The notes beneath the pieces are model-generated. The model made no database searches. It worked only from the letters and a program-made list of their open reading frames with translations, and was not told the origin of the DNA. Source: Cyanobacteria bacterium FACHB-471 (GTDB lineage: Bacteria; Cyanobacteriota; Cyanobacteriia; Elainellales; Elainellaceae). From it: DNA of 64,000 nt. A program made the translations under genes and the position numbers. The stretch's first letter is position 1, and each line of letters opens with the position of its first letter. Below, piece after piece: positions 10,169 through 26,033 of this stretch. The stretch spans positions 124,001 to 188,000 of the forward strand of contig JACJOC010000115.1 of assembly GCA_014695345.1 (NCBI GenBank), in the 5' to 3' direction.

Positions 10169-12424
10169 TCAACTTGATTGACGGCGTTGCAGTTCATCCC
10201 AGGGCAACAACAGCGTGTCCTCAATTTCAGCCCGGACAGAATCGCTAACGGCTCCCTCAATATTCATCAGGTCAACAAGAAGTTTGTTGGCATCGTAGTA
10301 GCGTTGCAATTGTTGCTGTTGAGCCTCTGTAAATTGCCAATCATGACCAACATTGCAATGCTCGATCATCACCTGACGCAGTTGTTCAACCCACTGCTCT
10401 CCTTTAGTTTGCCACCATTGCCAGAACTCCTTAGAGTTTCTGGGGAGGAAGCCTCTAAGTTGCTCAAGCTGAGTTGCCAGTTCTGAATTGGATTTGCGTG
10501 TGTGGGCGTGGGCAAGAGCGCACGAGAAGTCGAGAACGAGATCGAGGGTGTCGGCGTGGGCGAAGGCGAGGTCGAGGGCAAAGGCGGGGTCGAGAGCAAA
10601 GGCAAGGTCGAGGACGAGGTCGCGAGCGCGGGCGAGGGCAGGGATACGTCCGGGGGCATGGACGTAGTCAAGTTCAAGAGCAAAATAAAAAGCTCGAATG
10701 GCAGCAGGTCTACCAGGTGCCTGAATAGATTCTGCTCTTTGCAACATCCTTGTTAGGAATTGGGTTATTTTTGATTCATGGGCAATTGATCGATCAATTG
10801 CCTGTTTAATCAACCGTAGTAAACGATCCGCAGGTTGTTGAGATTTCACTAACTGCTTCACAACCTTCTGCCATTGCTGATCTGCAATTTTCTCAGCTAG
10901 TTCTTCAGAAGAAAGTTGAGTCAGCCATTGAACCGTGAAGTATTCCTGAAAAGTTAAGTGGGAGAACGATCACAGCTCATCTGCCCGTTCAATCAGCAAT
11001 CCATGCTGCGCTTCAATGGCTTTCAACACAGCAACTGCCTCTTGTTGATGAGCAAGGGGTAGCAATCGAGTAATTTGCCTTACAATTTCATTCTGCTCAA
11101 ACAACACAAAATTTTCTGGATTCTCAAACTTGTGAGCTGCAATCGTCATCAACAACTTCTCTTTTCGCTCAACACCCAGTTGTCGATAGGTTTCACTTCC
11201 CACTTCCCAGCCATCAATTTGCTTCTCCTCATTCCAGCGATTTAGCAGCAGTTTGATGCCCTTCTGGTAGAGCCAATTTCTATCCGACGGAATCTCCCCC
11301 TCGTCCTGTAACACTAAACATGTGAGACTTAACAATACTGGAGTTACCGTTAGTTCGTTCAATGCTGGGCTATTGTTAACGGCATTTTTAATTGTTGTCC
11401 ATTGCTGTGTAGCTACCGTCTTAGATTTACCATTTGCCTCAAACCAATTCTGGATAAACTGCTGCACTTGCTCCACACTGAAGTCTGCCACCTCTACTGA
11501 GGTAAATCCCTTTGGAATGGCGGCTATGATTTGAGTACGGCAGGTCAAAATAAACCGATTTTTAGGATATTGCTCAACTAACTTCTGAAGTTGTTTCTGA
11601 ACTTTGCTCCGTAGTTCCTTTGTTGGTACTTCATCCAGTCCATCCATCAGTACCAGGAGATTACCTTGGTTCAGCAATGTCTTAACCTGGTGTTCTTCTA
11701 GTCGTAATTCCTGCCTAATTGAATCCAGTAAATACCATTGCTCATCCCGAATTTCACGAAACTCAATCAAGACTGCAATCAGATTCGGTTGAAACTTACT
11801 TTTGCACCAATCTACTGCTAGATGCTTCAGAAAAGTTGTTTTCCCTGACCCCGGTTTGCCCAAGATCACCAATTTAGGCTTTCCATTAGCAATCTCAAAG
11901 CCCTCAATACGCTGAATCCGATCGCCCAACCCCAGACGATCATTTCGTAAATCAAAGGTTTCCAAAAGCTTCGATTGCGATACCCGATAGGTACAGGGCG
12001 ATCGATTCAGCACCCACACATCCACATAAAGCTGATCAACGCCAATCTCCTCACCACTCAGCAAACGCATCCGACTGTGCTGGTTGAGGATTTTTTGTCG
12101 GCAATGCTCCCGAACTTGCGGAATCAGGGCATCAATATGATTATCTTCAACTGACGAAGCGATCGCCTGATCAGCCTCACCCGTCTGAGATGGTGGAGCG
12201 ATCGCCTTGACTCCTGAAACTTCCTGCCAATTCAACCGCAACGCAGAGCAAATCTTACGAAACTCTGCCTCCCGCACTGGCTCCAGCTTAAAAAAAGCCG
12301 TGATCGTAGTACGGGACATCTTGAGGCGCTTTGCTAGGTCTGACTTGTTACCTACAAAGAATTGATTGAGCGCATCGTTCGCCAGTGTCCAGTTTGTTAG
12401 AACCAACTTGCGCGATCGCTCCAT
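10169..12424 (-). pseudogene. HTH-NACHT NTPase (bNACHT/STAND type) interrupted by an in-frame TGA
   Basis: The frame runs 751 codons with one internal stop at 10970-10972. Residues ~1-65 form an HTH (KSDLAKRLKMSRTTITAFF). Residues ~190-340 form the NACHT domain: Walker A GKPGSGKTTFLKHL, Walker B LLVLMDGLDEVPT, sensor RFILTCRT. After HGLLIERADEL comes TGA, and the same frame continues SFSHLTFQEYFTVQWLTQLS, a segment found directly after a Trp in intact relatives; TGG to TGA explains it. The rest is C-terminal sensor region with Ala/Leu/Asp low-complexity helices. Family members act in antiphage defence and signalling as bacterial NLR relatives. A GTG at 12436 is an alternative start. Confidence 0.8.
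10515..10665. repeat. low-complexity GA/CG-rich repeat within NACHT C-terminus
   Basis: Degenerate repeats of the gaggtcgagggcaaaggc type encode ALDLAFALDPAFALDLAF-like helices in the NACHT protein. The antisense strand shows long Arg/Gly-rich open frames that are artefacts of this composition. Confidence 0.75.
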
Positions 12425-12471
12425 ACCTACCGTCACCTCGACGTTTTAGCTCACCCACTATTCTATCTAGG

Positions 12472-17940: not shown

Positions 17941-19842
17941 ATGTGCGGAATCGTAGGATATGTCGGCACCCAGGCAGCCAGTGAAATTTTGCTGGAGGGG
18001 CTACGCAAATTAGAATATCGGGGCTACGATTCTGCTGGAATTGCCACCGTATGGGAAGGACAGGTTCACTGTGTACGGGCGAAAGGCAAACTGCAAAATT
18101 TGCAGGAAAAGCTAGAAGGGCTAGAAAATCCAGCTCAGGTAGGTATCGGACACACCCGCTGGGCGACACACGGCAAGCCAGAGGAATATAACGCACATCC
18201 CCACACCGACGCAGCCGGAAAAATTGCCGTTGTTCAAAATGGCATCATCGAAAACTATCGGGAACTGCGTGAAGAACTGAAGGCAAAGGGATACAAATTT
18301 CTCTCCGACACCGATACAGAGGTCATTCCTCACCTAATTGCCGAGTTCATGGCAAATCCGGCCGAAGCTGAGAAGTCGCTGAACTACCAGTCGCCGTTTC
18401 TGGAGGCAACTCGACAGGCTGTCAACCAGTTAAGGGGAGCTTTTGCGCTGGCGGTCGTGTGTGCCGACTACCCAGATGAGCTGATTGCCGTGCGGCAGCA
18501 GGCTCCCTTGGCATTGGGATTTGGGCAGGGTGAGTTTTTCTGCGCCTCAGACACGCCTGCTCTGGTGGCTCATACTCGCGCCGTGCTGACGATGGACAAT
18601 GGCGAATTAGCCAAACTCACCCCGATGGGCGTTGAGGTCTATAGCTTTGCGGGCGATCGCCTGAGAAAACAACCCCGCACCCTCAACTGGAACCCAATCA
18701 TTGTTGAAAAGCAAGGCTTCCGTCACTTCATGGTGAAGGAAATCTACGAACAGCCCGGTGTTGTGCGTTCTTGCTTAGAAGCTTACATTAAGAGCGATTG
18801 GCCTGCCGACCAGGACAAGAACCCAATCAACCTGGGCTTTCCTGAGTCGTTTTACAGCAACCTCGATCAAATCCAAATCGTTTCCTGCGGCACAAGCTGG
18901 CACGCTAGCCTGGTCGGAAAATATCTGCTAGAGCAACTGGCAGGCATTCCCACCGTAGTGCAGTACGCCTCAGAATTTCGCTATTCGCCGCCACCGCTGT
19001 TGCCCAATGTTCTAACCATTGGAGTTACTCAGTCCGGAGAAACGGCTGATACCCTATCAGCGCTGCACATGGAAAAGCAGCGTCGCCTGGAACGAGAGAC
19101 ACCGTATCACCCTCGCTTTTTGGGAATCACCAACCGCACCGATAGTTCTCTAGCGCACCTGGTGGACTACTTAATTGATACCCACGCCGGAATTGAGATT
19201 GGCGTTGCAGCGACTAAAACCTTTACCGCTCAACTGGTTGCTTTCTATTGCCTCGCGCTAGATCTGTCCTATCGCCGCAAAACGCTTTCTCCAGAGCGAA
19301 TGGAGGAAATCCTCACCGGGCTACGACAACTCCCCTCTCAAGTTGAGGTAATTCTAGAAAGCCAGGAACGCTACATCGAAGAACTGGCACACGATTTTGC
19401 GGAAACCAAGGACTTTATCTTCCTGGGACGCGGTATCAATTTCCCGATCGCTCTCGAAGGTGCCCTGAAACTCAAGGAAATCAGCTACATCCACGCCGAA
19501 GGCTATCCCGCTGGCGAAATGAAGCACGGCCCGATCGCCCTCCTAGATGCGAAAGTGCCAGTGGTGGCGATCGCCGTCCCCGGTAGCGTTTACGAAAAAA
19601 CACTCTCCAACGCCCAAGAAGCCAAAGCCAGAGACGCACGCCTGATCGGTGTAACTCCCATGAACGATTCGGAAGCCGCTGAGGTGTTTGACAACTTATT
19701 GCCCGTACCACCCGTGGATGAGTTATTATCTCCCATTCTCACGGTAATTCCACTCCAGTTTCTTGCTTATCACATTGCCGCCCGTCGAGGCTTAGATGTT
19801 GACCAGCCGAGGAATTTGGCTAAATCAGTGACTGTGGAATAG
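17941..19842 (+). CDS. glmS: glutamine-fructose-6-phosphate aminotransferase (isomerising)
   Basis: 633 aa; makes glucosamine-6-phosphate for cell-wall synthesis. The N-terminal glutaminase domain begins with catalytic Cys2 (MCGIVGYVG), and two SIS domains follow (VSCGTSWHASLVGKYLLE, TQSGETADTLSALH, GRGINFPIALEGALKLKEIS). AGGAG lies 10 bp before the ATG. The last codons encode DQPRNLAKSVTVE, the 3' end recognised by TnsD-type proteins as attTn7 in Tn7-bearing bacteria. A Tn7-like element end starts 24 bp after the stop. No glmS ribozyme was looked for beyond noting a normal 5' leader. Confidence 0.99.
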   Translation: MCGIVGYVGTQAASEILLEGLRKLEYRGYDSAGIATVWEGQVHCVRAKGKLQNLQEKLEGLENPAQVGIGHTRWATHGKPEEYNAHPHTDAAGKIAVVQNGIIENYRELREELKAKGYKFLSDTDTEVIPHLIAEFMANPAEAEKSLNYQSPFLEATRQAVNQLRGAFALAVVCADYPDELIAVRQQAPLALGFGQGEFFCASDTPALVAHTRAVLTMDNGELAKLTPMGVEVYSFAGDRLRKQPRTLNWNPIIVEKQGFRHFMVKEIYEQPGVVRSCLEAYIKSDWPADQDKNPINLGFPESFYSNLDQIQIVSCGTSWHASLVGKYLLEQLAGIPTVVQYASEFRYSPPPLLPNVLTIGVTQSGETADTLSALHMEKQRRLERETPYHPRFLGITNRTDSSLAHLVDYLIDTHAGIEIGVAATKTFTAQLVAFYCLALDLSYRRKTLSPERMEEILTGLRQLPSQVEVILESQERYIEELAHDFAETKDFIFLGRGINFPIALEGALKLKEISYIHAEGYPAGEMKHGPIALLDAKVPVVAIAVPGSVYEKTLSNAQEAKARDARLIGVTPMNDSEAAEVFDNLLPVPPVDELLSPILTVIPLQFLAYHIAARRGLDVDQPRNLAKSVTVE

Positions 19843-19845
19843 CAA

Positions 19846-19875
19846 TGCACGAAGTCCCAAAAAGATTGTGCACAG
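19846..19875. repeat. 30-bp imperfect direct repeat, left copy (partner 25493-25522)
   Basis: The spacer between glmS and the element contains GAAGTCCCAAAAAGA, repeated exactly inside the end of the NUDIX gene at ~25500. Extended similarity is about 25 of 30 positions. Read on the minus strand the left copy encodes FLGLRALL, matching FLGLHAML of NUDIX. It looks like a leftover NUDIX 3' end next to glmS. Confidence 0.6.
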
Positions 19876-19953
19876 AAAATAAAGTTGTACACTAACGAAT
19901 AAAGTATTACACCATTTGCTAAAGCTGTACACTGCAAAATAAAGCCATACATT
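19867..19953. repeat. Tn7R-like end: four TnsB-type sites at 20-bp period
   Basis: Terminus TGTGCACAGA (19867-19876), then sites at 19877-19893, 19897-19913, 19917-19933 and 19937-19953. Consensus is AATAAAGTTGTACACT, close to the Tn7 TnsB site pattern (AATAAAGTCTTAAACT from memory of the family). Close packing of four sites matches the right end of Tn7, the end that faces glmS. Confidence 0.8.
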
Positions 19954-19974
19954 ACAAGTATGGCTTTATTTTTT
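19941..19974. terminator. glmS: perfect 10-bp hairpin with T-run at the transposon end
   Basis: AAAGCCATAC (19941-19950) pairs exactly with GTATGGCTTT (19958-19967) around ATTACAA, followed by ATTTTTTG. It probably terminates glmS transcription before it enters the element. Its left arm is part of the fourth TnsB-like site. Confidence 0.85.
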
Positions 19975-20486: not shown

Positions 20487-21524
20487 ATGAAATCTTCAGC
20501 GTCTATCAGATATAAACATGCTTTCAACTCACAGCACAAAATTATATATATTGGGGATTTAACTAGATCAGCGGAGACCAAGAGTGAGACGTTTATTTGC
20601 ATATCATGTGGAAATGTTTTGATTCCAAAGCTAGGACAAATCAAACAAAAACATTTCGCTCACAAACATATTCAGAATTGCTCAGAAGAAACATATTTAC
20701 ATAAATTAGCAAAACTTGTTTTTGAACAAGAGTACTATTCATCATTAATCAATAATGAACCATTCTTTATTGAGTTAGAAATAGACAGAGTGTGTAATGC
20801 CTATCAAGACGATTTTGGAAGAATTTGTAATGTCGAAAGTATTAATAAGCTTTTTGACTTAACTAAAAGATATAAAAGGATAAGTCCAGAAACAAGAAGT
20901 GACGAATTCATTCCTGATATTTTACTGAGTGATAAAACTGGAGAAAAGAATCTATTTATTGAGATTGCTGTCACCCATCAAGTAACAGAGGAAAAAATAA
21001 GTTCAAAAACTCCAATCATTGAGATAAATATCGAAACTGAAGAAGATATTTTTGTTATCAAAGAGCGAATAATTAGACAAACCAACCCAAAGATTAAGTT
21101 AATTAACCTTGAGATAAAACCCGAAGAAGGAAGGTTTTGTGATGAGTTTGATTGCCCTGAACGTGTTGGTGTATTTAGAGTCTACAAAAATGGAAAAAGT
21201 ATCTTGACTTGGGAAAAACCGCCAAAAGCCAAATCTTTAATTGAAAAGCAAAACAACAGTGGTTTCTTGTATTTCAAAGTCATCAATGGAGATCATGTGT
21301 ATTCCTTGAGCGATGAATATAAGAAAAATCTAATTGAGGCTTACAACAATAAAATTGATATCAAAAACTGTTTTCTATGTCGATATCATGGAGAAAATTG
21401 GTCTTATTTCGACGATGATGAATGTCCTATATTTTGCAAGTTCCTGAAAGTAAAATGCAAATCAAATTATGCTTCAGAGTGTCAATACTATAAACCTGAC
21501 CAGAAATCCTTTCCTGACTTATAG
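20487..21524 (+). CDS. CoiA-like predicted nuclease (PD-(D/E)XK) with zinc-finger-like N-terminus
   Basis: 345 aa. The N-terminus (YKHAFNSQHKIIYIGD, then FICISCGNVLIPKLGQIK and HFAHK) follows the CoiA/COG4469 pattern of a CxxC knuckle plus a HFAH motif. The centre (SDEFIPDILLSD ... LFIEIAVTHQVTEEK) supplies the D and ExA positions of a PD-(D/E)XK nuclease core. The C-terminus is Cys-rich (CFLCRYHGENW, DDDECPIFCKF, CKSNYASECQYY), possibly a second metal site. CoiA acts on DNA during competence, but similar proteins occur as accessory nucleases. The gene is much more AT-rich than the window and overlaps the 3' end of the XRE-HNH gene by 37 bp tail to tail, signs of transferred cargo. Confidence 0.75.
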   Translation: MKSSASIRYKHAFNSQHKIIYIGDLTRSAETKSETFICISCGNVLIPKLGQIKQKHFAHKHIQNCSEETYLHKLAKLVFEQEYYSSLINNEPFFIELEIDRVCNAYQDDFGRICNVESINKLFDLTKRYKRISPETRSDEFIPDILLSDKTGEKNLFIEIAVTHQVTEEKISSKTPIIEINIETEEDIFVIKERIIRQTNPKIKLINLEIKPEEGRFCDEFDCPERVGVFRVYKNGKSILTWEKPPKAKSLIEKQNNSGFLYFKVINGDHVYSLSDEYKKNLIEAYNNKIDIKNCFLCRYHGENWSYFDDDECPIFCKFLKVKCKSNYASECQYYKPDQKSFPDL

Positions 21525-22906
21525 AACCAGTTTGACGAGAAACCCTGCTTTTCTGCCAATTTTATTAAAGGCTGAACTGTAGCAGAATATGCGTTTTCTA
21601 ATCTATCTAGACTAAGCAAATCTTCTGTATCCATCCTCAAATCACTGATAAACGGTTCAATGTATTTACCCCAAGCTTTCTCCCCCAAGTTTTTATGGGA
21701 GGTAGTTAGTCCAAGATGTTGAATAGCAACAAAGGCGCTAAAGTATTGCATTGCTGGTAAGTTGTTAGATTTTGATGAATTGGCTTCTGGAACTACTGGG
21801 ATCAAATTCCAAATTTGATCGTGCGCCACAAACGACCAAGGCAAATAGTGATCAAGAGCAATCTTATCAAGGCTTAGAGGTTGTCCAGAATAAATGCACT
21901 TAATAGGTTGATGCTGTAACACTAACCGCCAATATTTAGTCTGATTCGATAATGAGCCTCTCTGTTGAGGCATGAAAATTTTATTGACGATGCCTGGGAC
22001 GCTGGAATTTCTCTGGTGCATATAATTTAGCCATTCCCATGATGCCCATCCACGTACAACGGCGTAATGCTTCTCTATGTAAAAAGCCCACTCTGGATGA
22101 AAAATGATGGATTGGCAACCGCTATATTTATTTGAATCGAATCTGTAAAGAGGCTTTTTAATATCGAAGTGCTTTTCAGCGATCGCAGGCATCGCAACAT
22201 CTAACTTATTTCCTCTACCTCGGTTAACACCTTTTAGTTCCTGCTCCAGAAAAGGGATGATAAGGCGAAATGGGACATATTTTTTCAAGTGGCTGATTAC
22301 ATCCTTTAGATTCTGGGACGCAATCGCCTTACGCAATAGTTTCTTATCGGTATCTGTAAACTTGAGAATTGGCTCACTGATGTCTAGCACTAATGAATCT
22401 AGCTTCTGTGCAATCTTGTCCTGTGAACCGAATGACAGCTTAAAGTAAGTATGTGGATACCAGGCATTAGCAAGCATCTCAACGATTATTTCTTGGAAGC
22501 TGATAGGTGATAAGACATCAAACTGCCGTCGTTTTAGGATGTCTAAAAGCGAAATGAAGAAGAGAAATTTATAAGAAGTCGTTGTATCTGAGAAAAGCCT
22601 AGAGAGTGCAGAGACATTTAAATCCTCGGCTTGGGGAAGCTGGCTCAATTCTGGAAGTACTAAAGCTTCTTGCTCAACATCTATCCAACTTCCCAAGTAG
22701 AGCTTGATAAATTCCCTAGATGCTTCTACATCAATATCTTGAATGGCTTTGGCAATGCCAGCAGCAGTTTCGGCTGATGGATCAACTTGACCATGAAACC
22801 AACGGAAAAATATAGGACGCTCTACGCCCATCGCTACCGCCAGTTGATTCTGGCTAATGCCGTACTGTCCTAAGACCTGTTTTAGCGCATCGCTTACTTT
22901 ACCCAT
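21488..22906 (-). CDS. XRE HTH - HNH endonuclease fusion
   Basis: 472 aa. Residues 1-75 are an XRE domain (MGKVSDALKQVLGQYGISQN, QLAVAMGVERPIFFRWFHGQ) closely like the separate regulator at 9495-9749, including the EFIKLYLGSW tail. A central ~270-residue region is unrecognised. Residues ~350-410 (CIYSGQPLSLDKIALDHYLP, IWNLIPVVPEANSSKSNNLP) form an HNH nuclease core with the DH, N and KSN positions; only one Cys of the usual zinc knuckle is present. I chose ATG 22906 by homology with the other XRE protein. A GTAAATGTTTACAT dyad lies just upstream (~22936-22950), suggesting self-regulation. Confidence 0.8.
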   Translation of the reverse strand: MGKVSDALKQVLGQYGISQNQLAVAMGVERPIFFRWFHGQVDPSAETAAGIAKAIQDIDVEASREFIKLYLGSWIDVEQEALVLPELSQLPQAEDLNVSALSRLFSDTTTSYKFLFFISLLDILKRRQFDVLSPISFQEIIVEMLANAWYPHTYFKLSFGSQDKIAQKLDSLVLDISEPILKFTDTDKKLLRKAIASQNLKDVISHLKKYVPFRLIIPFLEQELKGVNRGRGNKLDVAMPAIAEKHFDIKKPLYRFDSNKYSGCQSIIFHPEWAFYIEKHYAVVRGWASWEWLNYMHQRNSSVPGIVNKIFMPQQRGSLSNQTKYWRLVLQHQPIKCIYSGQPLSLDKIALDHYLPWSFVAHDQIWNLIPVVPEANSSKSNNLPAMQYFSAFVAIQHLGLTTSHKNLGEKAWGKYIEPFISDLRMDTEDLLSLDRLENAYSATVQPLIKLAEKQGFSSNWFYKSGKDFWSGL

Positions 22907-22934
22907 TGCTTCATGGTGACAAAGAAGCACAATC

Positions 22935-22951
22935 TCGTAAATGTTTACATA
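22935..22951. promoter_or_regulatory. TAAATGTTTACAT dyad upstream of the XRE-HNH gene
   Basis: The sequence GTAAATGTTTACAT is nearly self-complementary and lies ~30 bp before the XRE-HNH start. It shares GTAAATG with the operator repeats of the XRE gene at 9787-9834, fitting related DNA-binding domains. Confidence 0.45.
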
Positions 22952-23023
22952 TTAGACAACAAAGTACTTGATTTTGTTATCAAAAATGGTAACATCTGAA
23001 CTGCAAGTATAGAGAGCTTACTT

Positions 23024-23260
23024 ATGTCTTACGGAGAGAGCCTACAATGTTGGGCTGTGATTCGCCTGTTGCCACATATGCAGCGGATCACTATACGCCG
23101 ATTTCGCAGAGAATCAGACGCAGATGGCTACCTAAAAGCTCTTCGTCGGTACGTTCCTGAAGGTAAATTTGTTTTGCTGTTTGATCCACCCTCTTCAGAA
23201 GCCGTAGATGAGCAAGGAACTACAAAGCAAATTGCACACATCCACAAAAACTTACTTTAG
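23024..23260 (+). CDS. small protein, unknown
   Basis: 78 aa: MSYGESLQCWAVIRLLPHMQ, then ITIRRFRRESDADGYLKALR and FVLLFDP. The pattern (compact alpha/beta with a SDADGYL helix) looks like a small cyanobacterial conserved protein, but I cannot name a family. It is followed 11 bp later by the 72-aa gene at 23272, so the two look like a bicistron within the Tn7-like cargo. A toxin-antitoxin arrangement is one possibility, not shown. Confidence 0.55.
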   Translation: MSYGESLQCWAVIRLLPHMQRITIRRFRRESDADGYLKALRRYVPEGKFVLLFDPPSSEAVDEQGTTKQIAHIHKNLL

Positions 23261-23271
23261 GAGAACATGAA

Positions 23272-23490
23272 ATGTTGACTGAACCTACAGGGTTTCCAGC
23301 TATCAATTCAATCAATAGTTACTTAGAATTGTTGCCAGAGGAACAACACCAGGAAGTATTCGATTTCACTCGAAACTTATTTATCACTATGCTTTTAGAG
23401 AAAATTGGCTCTTTGCCAGCTAATAAGCAGTGTGAGGTTATGGATTTTATCGAATACTTGATTGAGAAGACAAGGGATAAAAGTTGTTGA
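23272..23490 (+). CDS. small DUF2281-like protein
   Basis: 72 aa built from two similar half-repeats: LELLPEEQHQEVFDFTRNLF and KIGSLPANKQCEVMDFIEYL. The L-P-x-x-x-Q-x-E-V-x-D-F pattern is that of DUF2281/VapB-like antitoxin families. AGGAG lies 8 bp before the ATG. It directly follows the 78-aa gene. Confidence 0.6.
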   Translation: MLTEPTGFPAINSINSYLELLPEEQHQEVFDFTRNLFITMLLEKIGSLPANKQCEVMDFIEYLIEKTRDKSC

Positions 23491-23732
23491 AGACTAAGTG
23501 TTCTACAATTTTTTCCTGGGTTACGTTTCTTTCCGAGTCGTGTTGGACGAGCAAGGCTTGCTGAAGCTGCCGAGCTTAGCGCGATCACCATACTTCCAAT
23601 ACGTTTGCGTACAAGTGCAAAATTCGTGCAAAGTCAGGTACTTTCCCAACAAGATTTCATGCATTCAAGCGTCAGCCTCCTGAACCGGGAATTCTAACTC
23701 TGAACAGAGTCTAAAATTCTACGATACAAAAC

Positions 23733-25193
23733 ATGGCTGCCCTCCTAACAAAATCCAACTTTATGAGCGGGCTGCAATGCCTTAAAAAACTTTGGTTGGA
23801 AGTGCAGGAGCCACACCAAGCCACTGCTCTCTCTCCAGCCCAACAGCGCATTATCGACCAAGGCGAAGAGGTTGGGCATTACGCCCGTCAGCACTTTCCG
23901 AATGGGCAATTAATTGTGGGAAACGGAAACGAGGCTCTTCAAGCCACTCAAGATGCGATCGCGCCTGGAGTCTCTTGCCTTTTTGAAGCTGCTTTCAGTT
24001 TTGATGGCTTGTTCGTTCGATGCGACATTCTTCAGAAAACTTCAGCTGGCACATGGGAATTGATTGAAGTCAAATCCTCCAGCAAGGTTAAAGATGAGCA
24101 TCAGTGGGATTTAGCCCTTCAAAAATACGTTTTGATTGGGGTGGGGCTTTCTATTGGTGCAACGAAGCTGATGCATATCAATACCCAGACTTGCTGCTTT
24201 CCCGACCTGGCAGACCTTTTTGTAATTGCAGATATCACTGAAGAAGTCGATCGGCTTTTGCCTGAAGTTCCCAAACAACTTGAGCAATTCAGGGCGACCT
24301 TGACTGAAAACCTAGAACCAACATTGACGATCGGCAACCATTGTACTAGCCCCAACCCTTGCCCTTTCACGCAAGCTTGCTGGCAGCACGTCCCTGAAGT
24401 CTCTATCTTCACCATCCCTCGCTTGGACTGGAAGAAAAAAGATATGCTGCTTGCTCAAGGAGTGTTAGCAATCGCAGACCTTCCACTTAACTATGCCCTT
24501 TCAGGCAACCAGCGCACCTACGTCGATAGTGTTCTCACCAACCAGCCCGTAATTGACAAAGCAGCGATCGCTACCAGCCTTGCCGAACTTGAGTACCCTA
24601 TCCACTTCTTCGACTTTGAAGCACAAAACCCAGCTATTCCGAGATTTGATGGATTAAAACCCTATGAGCAGTTTTCCTTCCAATACAGTTGTCATGTCCT
24701 CCAATCTGATGGCTCTATAGAGCATCATGAATATCTACACACTGATCAGTCTGATCCCAGACCATCCCTTGTTGCAGCCTTAACGACAGACATTGCTTCT
24801 ATAGGCTCCATTGTTGTTTACCACAAATCCTTTGAAGCGAGTTTGCTTCGAAAACTCGGCGGAGACTTCCCTGAGCACACTTCGAAATTGGCAGCGATCG
24901 CTAATCGTCTTTGGGATCTAGAAGATATCTTCAAGTATCATTACAAGCATCCTAGTTTCCGAGGTTCTACCTCAATCAAAAACGTCCTTCCGATTCTCGT
25001 TTCTAATCTCAGCTACAAGTCACAGACCATCCAACGAGGCGATCAAGCCCAAGCAGTGTGGGAAGAAATGCTGATCTGCTTGGATGAGGCAAAAAGGACT
25101 CAAATGATTAACGATTTGAAAGCCTACTGTCAACTGGACACATTAGCAATGGTCGAGATTTATAAGTTTCTACTTAAGATGTTAGAAAACTGA
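23733..25193 (+). CDS. DUF2779-family nuclease (Cas4/RecB-like plus exonuclease-like domain)
   Basis: 486 aa. LTKSNFMSGLQCLKKLWLEV is the Cas4/RecB-type N-terminal Cys motif. ELIEVKSSSKVKDEHQWDLA (~residue 108) provides the ExK of a PD-(D/E)XK core, and CTSPNPCPFTQACW (~212) completes the Fe-S cysteine set seen in Cas4/AddB-like nucleases. Residues ~290-470 are DUF2779 with HFFDFEAQNP (DxE), VVYHKSFEASLLRKL and AYCQLDTLAMVEIYKFL (terminal D), resembling a DEDD exonuclease fold. It is the last gene before the distal transposon end. The role is inferred as nucleic-acid processing or defence. Confidence 0.8.
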   Translation: MAALLTKSNFMSGLQCLKKLWLEVQEPHQATALSPAQQRIIDQGEEVGHYARQHFPNGQLIVGNGNEALQATQDAIAPGVSCLFEAAFSFDGLFVRCDILQKTSAGTWELIEVKSSSKVKDEHQWDLALQKYVLIGVGLSIGATKLMHINTQTCCFPDLADLFVIADITEEVDRLLPEVPKQLEQFRATLTENLEPTLTIGNHCTSPNPCPFTQACWQHVPEVSIFTIPRLDWKKKDMLLAQGVLAIADLPLNYALSGNQRTYVDSVLTNQPVIDKAAIATSLAELEYPIHFFDFEAQNPAIPRFDGLKPYEQFSFQYSCHVLQSDGSIEHHEYLHTDQSDPRPSLVAALTTDIASIGSIVVYHKSFEASLLRKLGGDFPEHTSKLAAIANRLWDLEDIFKYHYKHPSFRGSTSIKNVLPILVSNLSYKSQTIQRGDQAQAVWEEMLICLDEAKRTQMINDLKAYCQLDTLAMVEIYKFLLKMLEN

Positions 25194-25243
25194 AAGCCAA
25201 CGGGAGCATAACCGTTACCACTTTGTTTTCATAGACTCTGATT

Positions 25244-25382
25244 GGTGTACAACTTTATTTACTGAAGAAAAGCCCTCTTTACAAAGAGAGTGTACAACTT
25301 TAATTATCACTGGTTTTTAATCTTGCTCAGTACTAAGGAGTTTTTGAGCAATCTGAGTGTACAACTTTATTTCAGCTGTACA
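25244..25382. repeat. Tn7L-like end: three inverted TnsB-type sites
   Basis: Sites at 25244-25260, 25289-25305 and 25356-25372 (GTGTACAACTTTATTT type on the plus strand) and terminus CAGCTGTACA ending at 25382. Wide, uneven spacing of three sites matches the left end of Tn7. The outermost site equals that at 19877-19893 in inverse orientation. Confidence 0.8.
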
Positions 25383-25481: not shown

Positions 25482-26033
25482 TCAGGACAGCATAGCATGA
25501 AGTCCCAAAAAGACTGCGGCAACAGTGCCGGAAACACTGATCTCACCTTGAATCAACTTCTCTTGAACTGCATCAATTGGAATCAGCAAAACCTCGATCT
25601 CCTCAGTGTGGTCGAGGTTTTGAGCAGAAACCAGTTCAACATTATCAGCCAGAAATAGGTGGATTTTGTTTGTTTCCTTCACTGGATTGTCGTAGAGTGT
25701 GGCTAATTTGGTTAAGTGAGTGGCACGATATCCTGTTTCCTCCTGAAGTTCGCGTAGGGCAGCAGATTCAGCGATCTCCTTTTGTGGATCGAAGGTGCCC
25801 GCCGGAAGCTCAATCAACACTTTTCCTGCACCGTGACGGTATTGACGAACAAAGACAATTTCTCGCTTTGCAGTCACCGGAAACACCAGTGCTACATCAG
25901 GTCTAACGCTGAGAAAGTAGTCATCGACGATCGCCCCATTAGACAACTCCACTACATCCTGCCGCACCTTATACCACCGATGATCAAACACCAGTTCAGA
26001 ATGCAGTAATTTCCAGGGCATTAACTCTTTCAT
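25482..26033 (-). CDS. NUDIX hydrolase, ADP-ribose pyrophosphatase-like
   Basis: 183 aa hydrolysing a nucleoside diphosphate derivative, probably ADP-ribose. The Nudix box is GTFDPQKEIAESAALRELQE followed by ETGY; it has six instead of five residues between the first G and E, otherwise REL-EE-G is intact. Upstream VFVRQYRHGAGKVLIELPAG is typical of ADP-ribose pyrophosphatases. Its last codons are echoed beside glmS across the Tn7-like element, suggesting glmS and NUDIX were convergent neighbours before insertion. Confidence 0.92.
   Translation of the reverse strand: MKELMPWKLLHSELVFDHRWYKVRQDVVELSNGAIVDDYFLSVRPDVALVFPVTAKREIVFVRQYRHGAGKVLIELPAGTFDPQKEIAESAALRELQEETGYRATHLTKLATLYDNPVKETNKIHLFLADNVELVSAQNLDHTEEIEVLLIPIDAVQEKLIQGEISVSGTVAAVFLGLHAMLS

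What the first reader, a model, noticed from the sequence alone, without database searches (positions are those of the whole stretch)
20487..25193. Nuclease-rich cargo: candidate undescribed defence cassette
CoiA-like PD-(D/E)XK nuclease, XRE-HNH fusion nuclease, two small genes and a DUF2779 Cas4/RecB-like nuclease sit together inside the element. Tn7-like elements often carry defence cargo. CoiA-like proteins outside competence loci have little described function.
Basis: partly seen in the sequence, partly recalled or inferred. Interest (0 to 1): 0.82.

Follow-up and report, generated by a model that had tools for sequence, protein, structure and literature searches.

The report
Self-regulated nuclease from phosphorothioation islands
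A small mobile element in a cyanobacterium carries a mixed load of genes, one of which is a likely DNA-cutting enzyme that in many other cyanobacteria sits among genes that put sulfur marks on DNA as a virus defence, and that appears to hold down its own gene through a conserved DNA site.

Summary
The element has no transposase and no visible target duplication, and the three nucleases are not a recurring cassette: of 314 loci fetched, only one besides the window's own holds two of the families (a distant HNH plus CoiA). The striking part is the divergent pair s78 / XRE-HNH (21488-23260). Its closest relative (Tildeniella nuda, 82.5% DNA identity over 1,677 bp) lies in an Ssp DNA-phosphorothioation island, and SspB, C or D genes lie within 10 kb of 13 of 23 full HNH homologues. 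The protein joins a controller-type XRE domain to a Cas9-type HNH domain with conserved catalytic residues. An 18-bp palindrome, GTTATCA-N4-TGATAAC, precedes 14 of 15 genes with the same recognition helix and 0 of 5 with others: strong sequence evidence for self-regulation. No SspD was found in this genome, so here the nuclease is an orphan. I found no description of this family in the papers searched. Best reading: an accessory, self-controlled HNH effector of Ssp islands carried off by a glmS Tn7-like element. Defence is inferred, not shown. Synechocystis PCC 6803 carries a relative, so it is testable.

The parts
17941..19842 (+). glmS, the attachment-site gene
19867..19972 (.). glmS-side (Tn7 R-type) end: starts TGT after 25 bp from the glmS stop; four 20-bp-spaced sites at 19878, 19898, 19918, 19938
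   Evidence: similar array after glmS in other cyanobacteria
20487..21524 (+). CoiA-like gene (345 aa), GC 31.7%
   Evidence: Pfam CoiA_N 1.3e-11; GC
21488..22930 (-). XRE-HNH gene; probable start ATG at 22906; XRE about aa 16-64, HNH_4 aa 345-392
22943..22960 (.). second, weaker palindrome-like site (10 of 14), 33 bp nearer the XRE-HNH start
22976..22993 (.). predicted operator (13 of 14 positions of GTTATCA-N4-TGATAAC)
23024..23260 (+). s78, small conserved protein divergent from XRE-HNH
   Evidence: homologues in the same divergent place
23272..23490 (+). VapB-like (DUF2281) gene without a toxin gene beside it
23733..25193 (+). DUF2779 gene (Cas4/RecB-like N-terminus, RNase H-like C-terminus)
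25243..25382 (.). far (Tn7 L-type) end: three spaced inverted copies, ending ACA at 25382
25482..26033 (-). NUDIX gene, right flank; near its 3' end lies one copy of a 28-nt repeat (86%) whose other copy is 19841-19868

Best explanation
The stretch is the mixed cargo of a transposase-less Tn7-like element parked just after glmS. One unit of that cargo, the divergent pair s78 / XRE-HNH with its palindromic operator, comes from an Ssp DNA-phosphorothioation island. XRE-HNH is a self-controlled nuclease: its N-terminal helix-turn-helix binds GTTATCA-N4-TGATAAC upstream of its own start and keeps its expression low, as controller proteins do in restriction-modification systems, while its C-terminal Cas9-type HNH domain nicks or cuts DNA. 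In Ssp islands it serves as an accessory restriction effector beside SspABCD; in this genome, where no SspD was found, it is an orphan that must work without sulfur marks or stay idle. Shown here by sequence: ends, place, island membership of relatives, catalytic residues, operator and its link to the recognition helix, no SspD match in the genome. Inferred: DNA binding, autoregulation, cutting, phage or plasmid defence, capture by transposition.
For: Nearest relative L084 (Tildeniella nuda, 88% over aa 86-471) is in an island with SspC (cut by the locus end), SspD, two SspB-like genes, XRE-HNH, BrxL and SspA on one strand and s78 opposite; DNA identity with the window covers just s78 to the HNH end (21520-23195, 82.5%). 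Of 27 genomes with a strong match to aa 86-480, 23 match into the HNH; of these 23, 13 have SspB, C or D and 15 have any of SspA-D within about 10 kb; for all 27 the figures are 14 and 17. Of 26 long loci fetched for other reasons, 1 has SspB or C (L128, a DUF2779 locus). PADLOC in G025: SspC E=0, SspD 2.6e-118, SspA 6.3e-137, SspB 1.7e-12. Synechocystis PCC 6803 pSYSM and Leptolyngbya BL0902 have SspB, SspC, HNH (with XRE fused or separate) and SspA together. D360, H361, N375, N384, K387 are invariant in 24 chosen sequences; the segment aligns with the Cas9 HNH. Operator: 14 of 15 genes with the RP[IV]xFRW helix score 13-14 of 14, 0 of 5 with other helices exceed 10; in 2.44 Mb of fetched loci 27 of 28 such matches (overlapping loci counted again) lie upstream of XRE-HNH, swapped-half control 0. 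Best fold matches of the XRE part are controller proteins. SspD model: no match in the own genome.
Against: HNH is in only 7 of 22 SspD loci fetched from the phylum set (8 of 23 with G025), so it is optional; 8 of the 23 full homologues (10 of 27) have no SspA-D gene in the locus, some because the contig ends. Three of the 17 rest on SspA alone (G037, G072 and a fragment in G208), which could be another desulfurase. In G153 it sits beside a full SspFGH module, so it does not simply stand in for a missing effector. No binding, enzyme or phage data. The AlphaFold model is poor (mean pLDDT 50.7), so aa 97-320 are unassigned; that part alone, without HNH, occurs in at least seven genomes. The fold matches of the XRE part have E 0.03 or weaker. 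The operator consensus was read off four of the 15 genes first and the helix classes were set after seeing scores; counting L064 and L086 as RP-type gives 14 of 17; the genes are related, so they are not independent. s78 was found in 9 of 49 loci (46, L268 and L270, the window).
Confidence: 0.6

Rival explanations
1. Inert cargo: the unit is a leftover of a decayed Ssp island, kept by chance in a dead transposon, with no present function.
For: No transposase, no visible duplication, no SspD in the genome; a second glmS element with an HNH copy (G119) has that copy broken by two stops; Ssp genes are fragments beside HNH in several loci.
Against: The window copy is open over its whole length, with all catalytic residues and the operator; 82.5% DNA against 87-88% protein identity to L084 suggests the protein has been kept (no dN/dS was computed).
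Confidence: 0.2
2. Type IV-like guard: XRE-HNH cuts phosphorothioated incoming DNA and so lives best in genomes without the marks.
For: It persists where SspD was not found (G000 genome; PCC 6803 and BL0902 loci only).
Against: In 8 genomes it lies beside SspD, which would be suicidal unless restrained; no SBD or SRA domain by Pfam.
Confidence: 0.1
3. The genes act together as one undescribed defence cassette.
For: They are adjacent between the two ends. In Acinetobacter plasmid pYH12138-1 a CoiA-family gene directly follows an HNH_4 gene distantly related to this one. The nearest DUF2779 relative found (G143, 54%) lies between SspB and SspC fragments, so two of the nucleases have a relative in an Ssp island. 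I raised this rival from 0.05 to 0.07 for these two facts.
Against: No other of the 314 loci has two of the three families; 9 of 10 DUF2779 loci have no SspA-D gene; mixed orientation and GC; similarity to the island relative covers only s78 to HNH.
Confidence: 0.07
4. XRE-HNH supports the modification step, for example by nicking DNA for sulfur insertion, as predicted for SspB (passage of PMC9646914), and is not a restriction effector.
For: It lies next to SspD and SspC whatever restriction genes follow (SspFGH, BrxL, Pbe-like).
Against: Absent from 15 of 22 SspD loci of the phylum set, and present without SspD elsewhere.
Confidence: 0.05

Closest known systems
SspE of SspABCD-SspE (passages of PMC9646914)
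   Same: HNH nuclease working with SspABCD; full-length SspE alone is reported not toxic to cells without sulfur marks, as an active orphan XRE-HNH would have to be
   Different: SspE has an N-terminal NTPase domain and a DUF1524 HNH whose fold differs from the Cas9 one; here the N-terminus is XRE plus an unassigned domain and the HNH is the Cas9 type (HNH_4)
DndI (passages of PMC11662687)
   Same: HNH nuclease coupled to phosphorothioation
   Different: DUF262-DUF1524 make-up; reported toxic to cells lacking the marks
ScoMcrA-type SBD/SRA-HNH enzymes (abstract start of PMC7461809 in a listing; passages of PMC10853773)
   Same: DNA-binding domain fused to HNH, linked to phosphorothioation
   Different: No SBD or SRA match here; the fused domain is an XRE helix-turn-helix with its own predicted operator
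Restriction-modification controller (C) proteins such as C.Esp1396I (function recalled)
   Same: Best fold matches of the XRE part and palindromes upstream of own gene
   Different: C proteins are separate small proteins (recalled); here the controller is fused to the nuclease
glmS Tn7-like elements with TnsABC-TniQ (L174) and the Tn7 cargo survey (passages of PMC8649781)
   Same: End arrays and place after glmS
   Different: No tns genes, no visible duplication

Membership tests
Tn7-like transposon at glmS | Arrays of transposase sites at both ends, inverted | tested here: met
Tn7-like transposon at glmS | Insertion just after the glmS stop | tested here: met
   25 bp; array within about 40 bp of the glmS stop in 7 other fetched genomes and close after it in 4 of 29 other genomes of the order
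Tn7-like transposon at glmS | TnsA, TnsB, TnsC and TniQ/TnsD genes within the element | tested here: not met
   no match to the L174 Tns proteins; three TniQ matches elsewhere in the genome
Tn7-like transposon at glmS | 5-bp target duplication | tested here: not met
   AAGAT vs CCCAA
Ssp phosphorothioation system | SspA, B, C, D genes with the nuclease | tested here: not met
   none in the window; no SspD in the genome; A, B, C not searched in the rest of the genome. Met for relatives
SspE / DndI effectors | DUF262-type NTPase plus DUF1524 HNH | tested here: not met
   Pfam gives HTH and HNH_4 only
SBD/SRA-HNH phosphorothioate-dependent enzymes | Sulfur-binding or SRA domain | tested here: not met
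   no such Pfam match; the middle domain has no confident model
Cas9 | HNH catalytic residues | tested here: met
   D360/H361, N375, N384 align with the Cas9 HNH (Cas9 roles recalled)
Cas9 | Rest of Cas9 (RuvC, REC, PAM-reading parts) | tested here: not met
   only the HNH segment matches
R-M controller protein | XRE domain with palindromes upstream of own gene | tested here: met
   (sequence only)
R-M controller protein | Binds operator and regulates own gene | not testable with these tools
   needs binding and reporter assays
Type II toxin-antitoxin VapBC | VapB with adjacent VapC | tested here: not met
   72-aa gene matches DUF2281 and, below cut-off, VapB; neighbours s78 and DUF2779 gene are no toxin by Pfam

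The most novel reading that the evidence does not exclude
XRE-HNH founds a new class of phosphorothioation-linked restriction effector in which the transcription controller and the nuclease are one protein, so that the enzyme times its own appearance, and which can leave its Ssp island and act as a stand-alone mobile defence without sulfur marks.
Probability: 0.3. Interest if true: 0.8.

Novelty: new variant of a known kind. Interest (0 to 1): 0.6.

Why it matters
If true, it adds an HNH effector of a different make-up from SspE and DndI to the sulfur-mark defences, with a built-in controller, in cyanobacteria, where I found no description of it in the papers searched. A relative on pSYSM of the model strain Synechocystis PCC 6803 makes the operator and the nuclease directly testable. 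It also shows a transposase-less glmS Tn7-like element carrying a defined piece of a defence island.

Tried and rejected
Cassette of three nucleases: rejected as a recurring unit. Phage carriage: two scans of viral contigs gave no relative of the HNH core or CoiA; they reach close relatives only. CoiA with HNH: one Acinetobacter plasmid has an HNH_4-CoiA pair, one Picosynechococcus plasmid has an HNH_2 gene near CoiA with no real similarity to ours; in one IncHI and one Alteromonas plasmid CoiA-like genes sit directly before a helicase gene; too few for a system. Structure: AlphaFold model of poor confidence; Foldseek informative for the XRE part only, no match with E<=0.001. A second structure job was not used. 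Tns remnants in the element: none found. Empty site: two same-genus genomes have glmS without the array but a different neighbour, so the insertion could not be reconstructed; the 28-nt repeat near both flanks stays unexplained. Literature: searches for SspABCD with HNH (17 papers listed), phosphorothioate-cyanobacteria-HNH-ssp, SspB-SspC-SspD-HNH-helix-turn-helix, pSYSM-phosphorothio, DUF4007 (94, 3), SspE/SspFGH since 2024 (110, the top 20 of 20,970 loose matches); DUF2779 (26), CoiA (95). Passages found by term were read in PMC10853773, PMC12839542, PMC11662687 and PMC9646914, and in two Tn7 papers; the others were seen as listings. None of what I saw names an XRE or Cas9-type HNH protein in Ssp islands; most subscription papers and supplements were out of reach. 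Rows dropped before counts: 10 of 37 matches (E 1.2e-10 or weaker, short segments); SspD matches weaker than 1e-50, and 16 of 38 strong SspD genomes (all of lineages f31 and f40) whose loci were not fetched.
Full report
What is there. The five genes of the finding are present and open at the given coordinates. They lie between two inverted arrays of a GTACAACTTTATT-like site: four sites at 20-bp steps beginning 25 bp after the glmS stop, and three spaced sites ending at 25382. The layout is that of Tn7, whose right end has closely packed sites and faces glmS (recalled). A two-site pattern of this kind was found in 27 of 386 genomes of the phylum; the pattern read backwards occurs in 8, so some of the 27 are chance. 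In fetched loci the array lies within about 40 bp of the glmS stop in seven other genomes (G119, G090, G143, G177, G416, G179, G221; in G153 about 0.75 kb away), and close after glmS in four of 29 other genomes of the order (G003, G016, G009, G015). G177 has TnsA, TnsB, TnsC and TniQ genes there; G179 has a short element of about 1.4-1.8 kb. The window's element has no tns gene or remnant detectable with the G177 proteins and no visible 5-bp duplication. In two same-genus genomes glmS lacks the array and its neighbour is not the NUDIX gene, so the right flank has a separate history. A one-site scan of the own genome showed only this locus with clustered sites.

Not one recurring cassette. CoiA-like: 10 of 386 genomes match, the window included; beyond it only G092 and G108 (the latter broken by a stop) match over most of the length; 1 of 36 in the order, the window itself. 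HNH core (aa 86-480): 37 of 386, of which 27 strong; four of the 27 (G037, G061, G121, G332) match only the part before the HNH. DUF2779: 15 of 244. Of 314 loci fetched, only one apart from the window's own copies contains two of the three: Acinetobacter plasmid pYH12138-1, CoiA (35%) after a distant HNH_4 gene (21%, E 6.8e-8). G088, G119 and G127 have HNH and DUF2779 on different contigs or more than 400 kb apart. GC content runs 31.7% (CoiA), 41.0% (XRE-HNH), 46.3% (DUF2779), window 49.1%. One fact points the other way: the nearest DUF2779 relative found (G143, 54%) is intact between fragments of SspB and SspC. Of 10 DUF2779 loci opened, this is the only one with an SspA-D gene; in one more (G088) a distant SspH-like stretch lies beside it.

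The HNH gene belongs to phosphorothioation islands. Clustering the neighbours of the HNH family brought out a cysteine desulfurase, a PAPS-reductase-like protein, a large AAA+ protein and a further family, which PADLOC names SspA, SspD, SspC and SspB. G025 has SspC-SspD-SspB-XRE-HNH-SspA on one strand, with s78 opposite. Of the 23 genomes whose match reaches the HNH, 13 have SspB, C or D and 15 any of A-D within about 10 kb; for all 27 the figures are 14 and 17 (several loci end sooner at contig ends; three of the 17 rest on SspA alone). As a rough control, of 26 long loci fetched for other reasons 1 has SspB or C, the G143 DUF2779 locus. Looked at from the other side, HNH is present in 7 of 22 SspD loci fetched from the phylum set, 8 of 23 with G025. 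It occurs with SspFGH (G153), with BrxL (G090, G221, L084) or with a PbeA-like helicase and a GHKL-type protein (G179, G076, G318), so it is an accessory gene tied to the modification part rather than to one restriction module. Named examples: Tildeniella nuda (L084); Synechocystis PCC 6803 pSYSM, where SspC is cut short and no SspD lies in the 25-kb locus; Leptolyngbya BL0902 plasmid. The window shares with L084 the block from the HNH end to near the end of s78: 1,677 bp, 82.5%. The window's genome (99.9% complete) gives no match to the SspD model at E<=0.001. That model also picked up, at E 1.7e-9, a protein of G088 that looks like DndC (my reading of its sequence), so a DndC might have shown too; Dnd, SspA, SspB and SspC models were not run on the rest of the own genome.

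How it works. The HNH part aligns to the Cas9 HNH domain with its catalytic positions conserved (hmmsearch E=2.4e-5; D360, H361, N375, N384, K387 invariant in 24 chosen sequences). The best fold matches of the XRE part are controller proteins of restriction-modification systems (E 0.03, probability 1.00), though XRE folds are common. Upstream of the gene lies an 18-bp palindrome, often with a second weaker copy about 33 bp away. Of 20 distinct fused genes found in the loci then in hand, 15 have the recognition helix RP[IV]xFRW and 14 of these have 13 or 14 of 14 palindrome positions; the exception (L055) begins inside the SspC reading frame. The five with other helices (L064, L069, L086, L091, L093) reach at most 10. 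The consensus came from four of the 15 (window, L084, L088, L097); of the other 11, 10 match. In one search, which scored 14 RP-type genes, no shuffle of 500 equalled the score for 13 (L122, the same gene as L055: 49 of 500); for three RSN-type genes 247 to 470 shuffles did, and for two separate XRE genes 474 and 500. Across 2,440,587 bases of loci, 27 of 28 matches are upstream of XRE-HNH and the swapped control gives 0 (overlapping loci are counted more than once). The genes share ancestry, so these are not independent trials, but the joint change of helix and site is the strongest evidence here that the protein binds the site and regulates its own gene, and s78 across the same stretch where present (inferred).

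What kind of effector. SspE is reported harmless without sulfur marks, while DndI harms such cells (passages). XRE-HNH is open in a genome without a found SspD, so if active it must be harmless alone or held down by its own XRE domain. That leaves an SspE-like mode, a self-repressed stand-alone nuclease, a type IV mode or inert cargo; the first two together are my best reading.

Caution. Defence was not shown; 10 of 27 genomes have no SspA-D neighbour in the locus; the middle domain is unassigned; the literature check covers an open-access library only, much of it as listings.

Noticed in passing
L128:7718-12601 (G143): A DUF2779 gene, the nearest relative found of the window's, stands intact between an SspB fragment and SspC fragments of a decayed Ssp island.
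   Followed up: partly
L276, L277; plasmid search listing: A CoiA-like protein was matched in 800 plasmid records, 671 of them predicted conjugative; in one IncHI and one Alteromonas plasmid opened it lies directly before a helicase gene, UvrD-type by Pfam in the IncHI one.
   Followed up: partly
L273:1694-6023: Acinetobacter plasmid pYH12138-1: HNH protein with a weak GmrSD match, SAM methyltransferase, HNH_4 protein and CoiA in a row on one strand.
   Followed up: partly
L170-L172 (G143), L177 (G179): After glmS three Tn7-type end arrays of one orientation follow one another over about 37 kb in G143, and a short element of about 1.4-1.8 kb stands in G179.
   Followed up: no
window 19841-19868 and 25489-25516: A 28-nt repeat (86%) near both flanks; the right copy is the NUDIX 3' end, which no simple insertion explains.
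   Followed up: partly
L042, L252, L253, L259, L265-L267: Proteins that match only about aa 97-320 of XRE-HNH, without the HNH part, in seven genomes.
   Followed up: no
L036, L040, L041: s78 homologues also stand divergent to XRE genes without HNH, a possible wider two-gene unit.
   Followed up: no
window 10970-12436: NACHT ATPase with a weak HTH match, scoring against a PADLOC candidate family (PDC-S60, E 6.8e-14).
   Followed up: no
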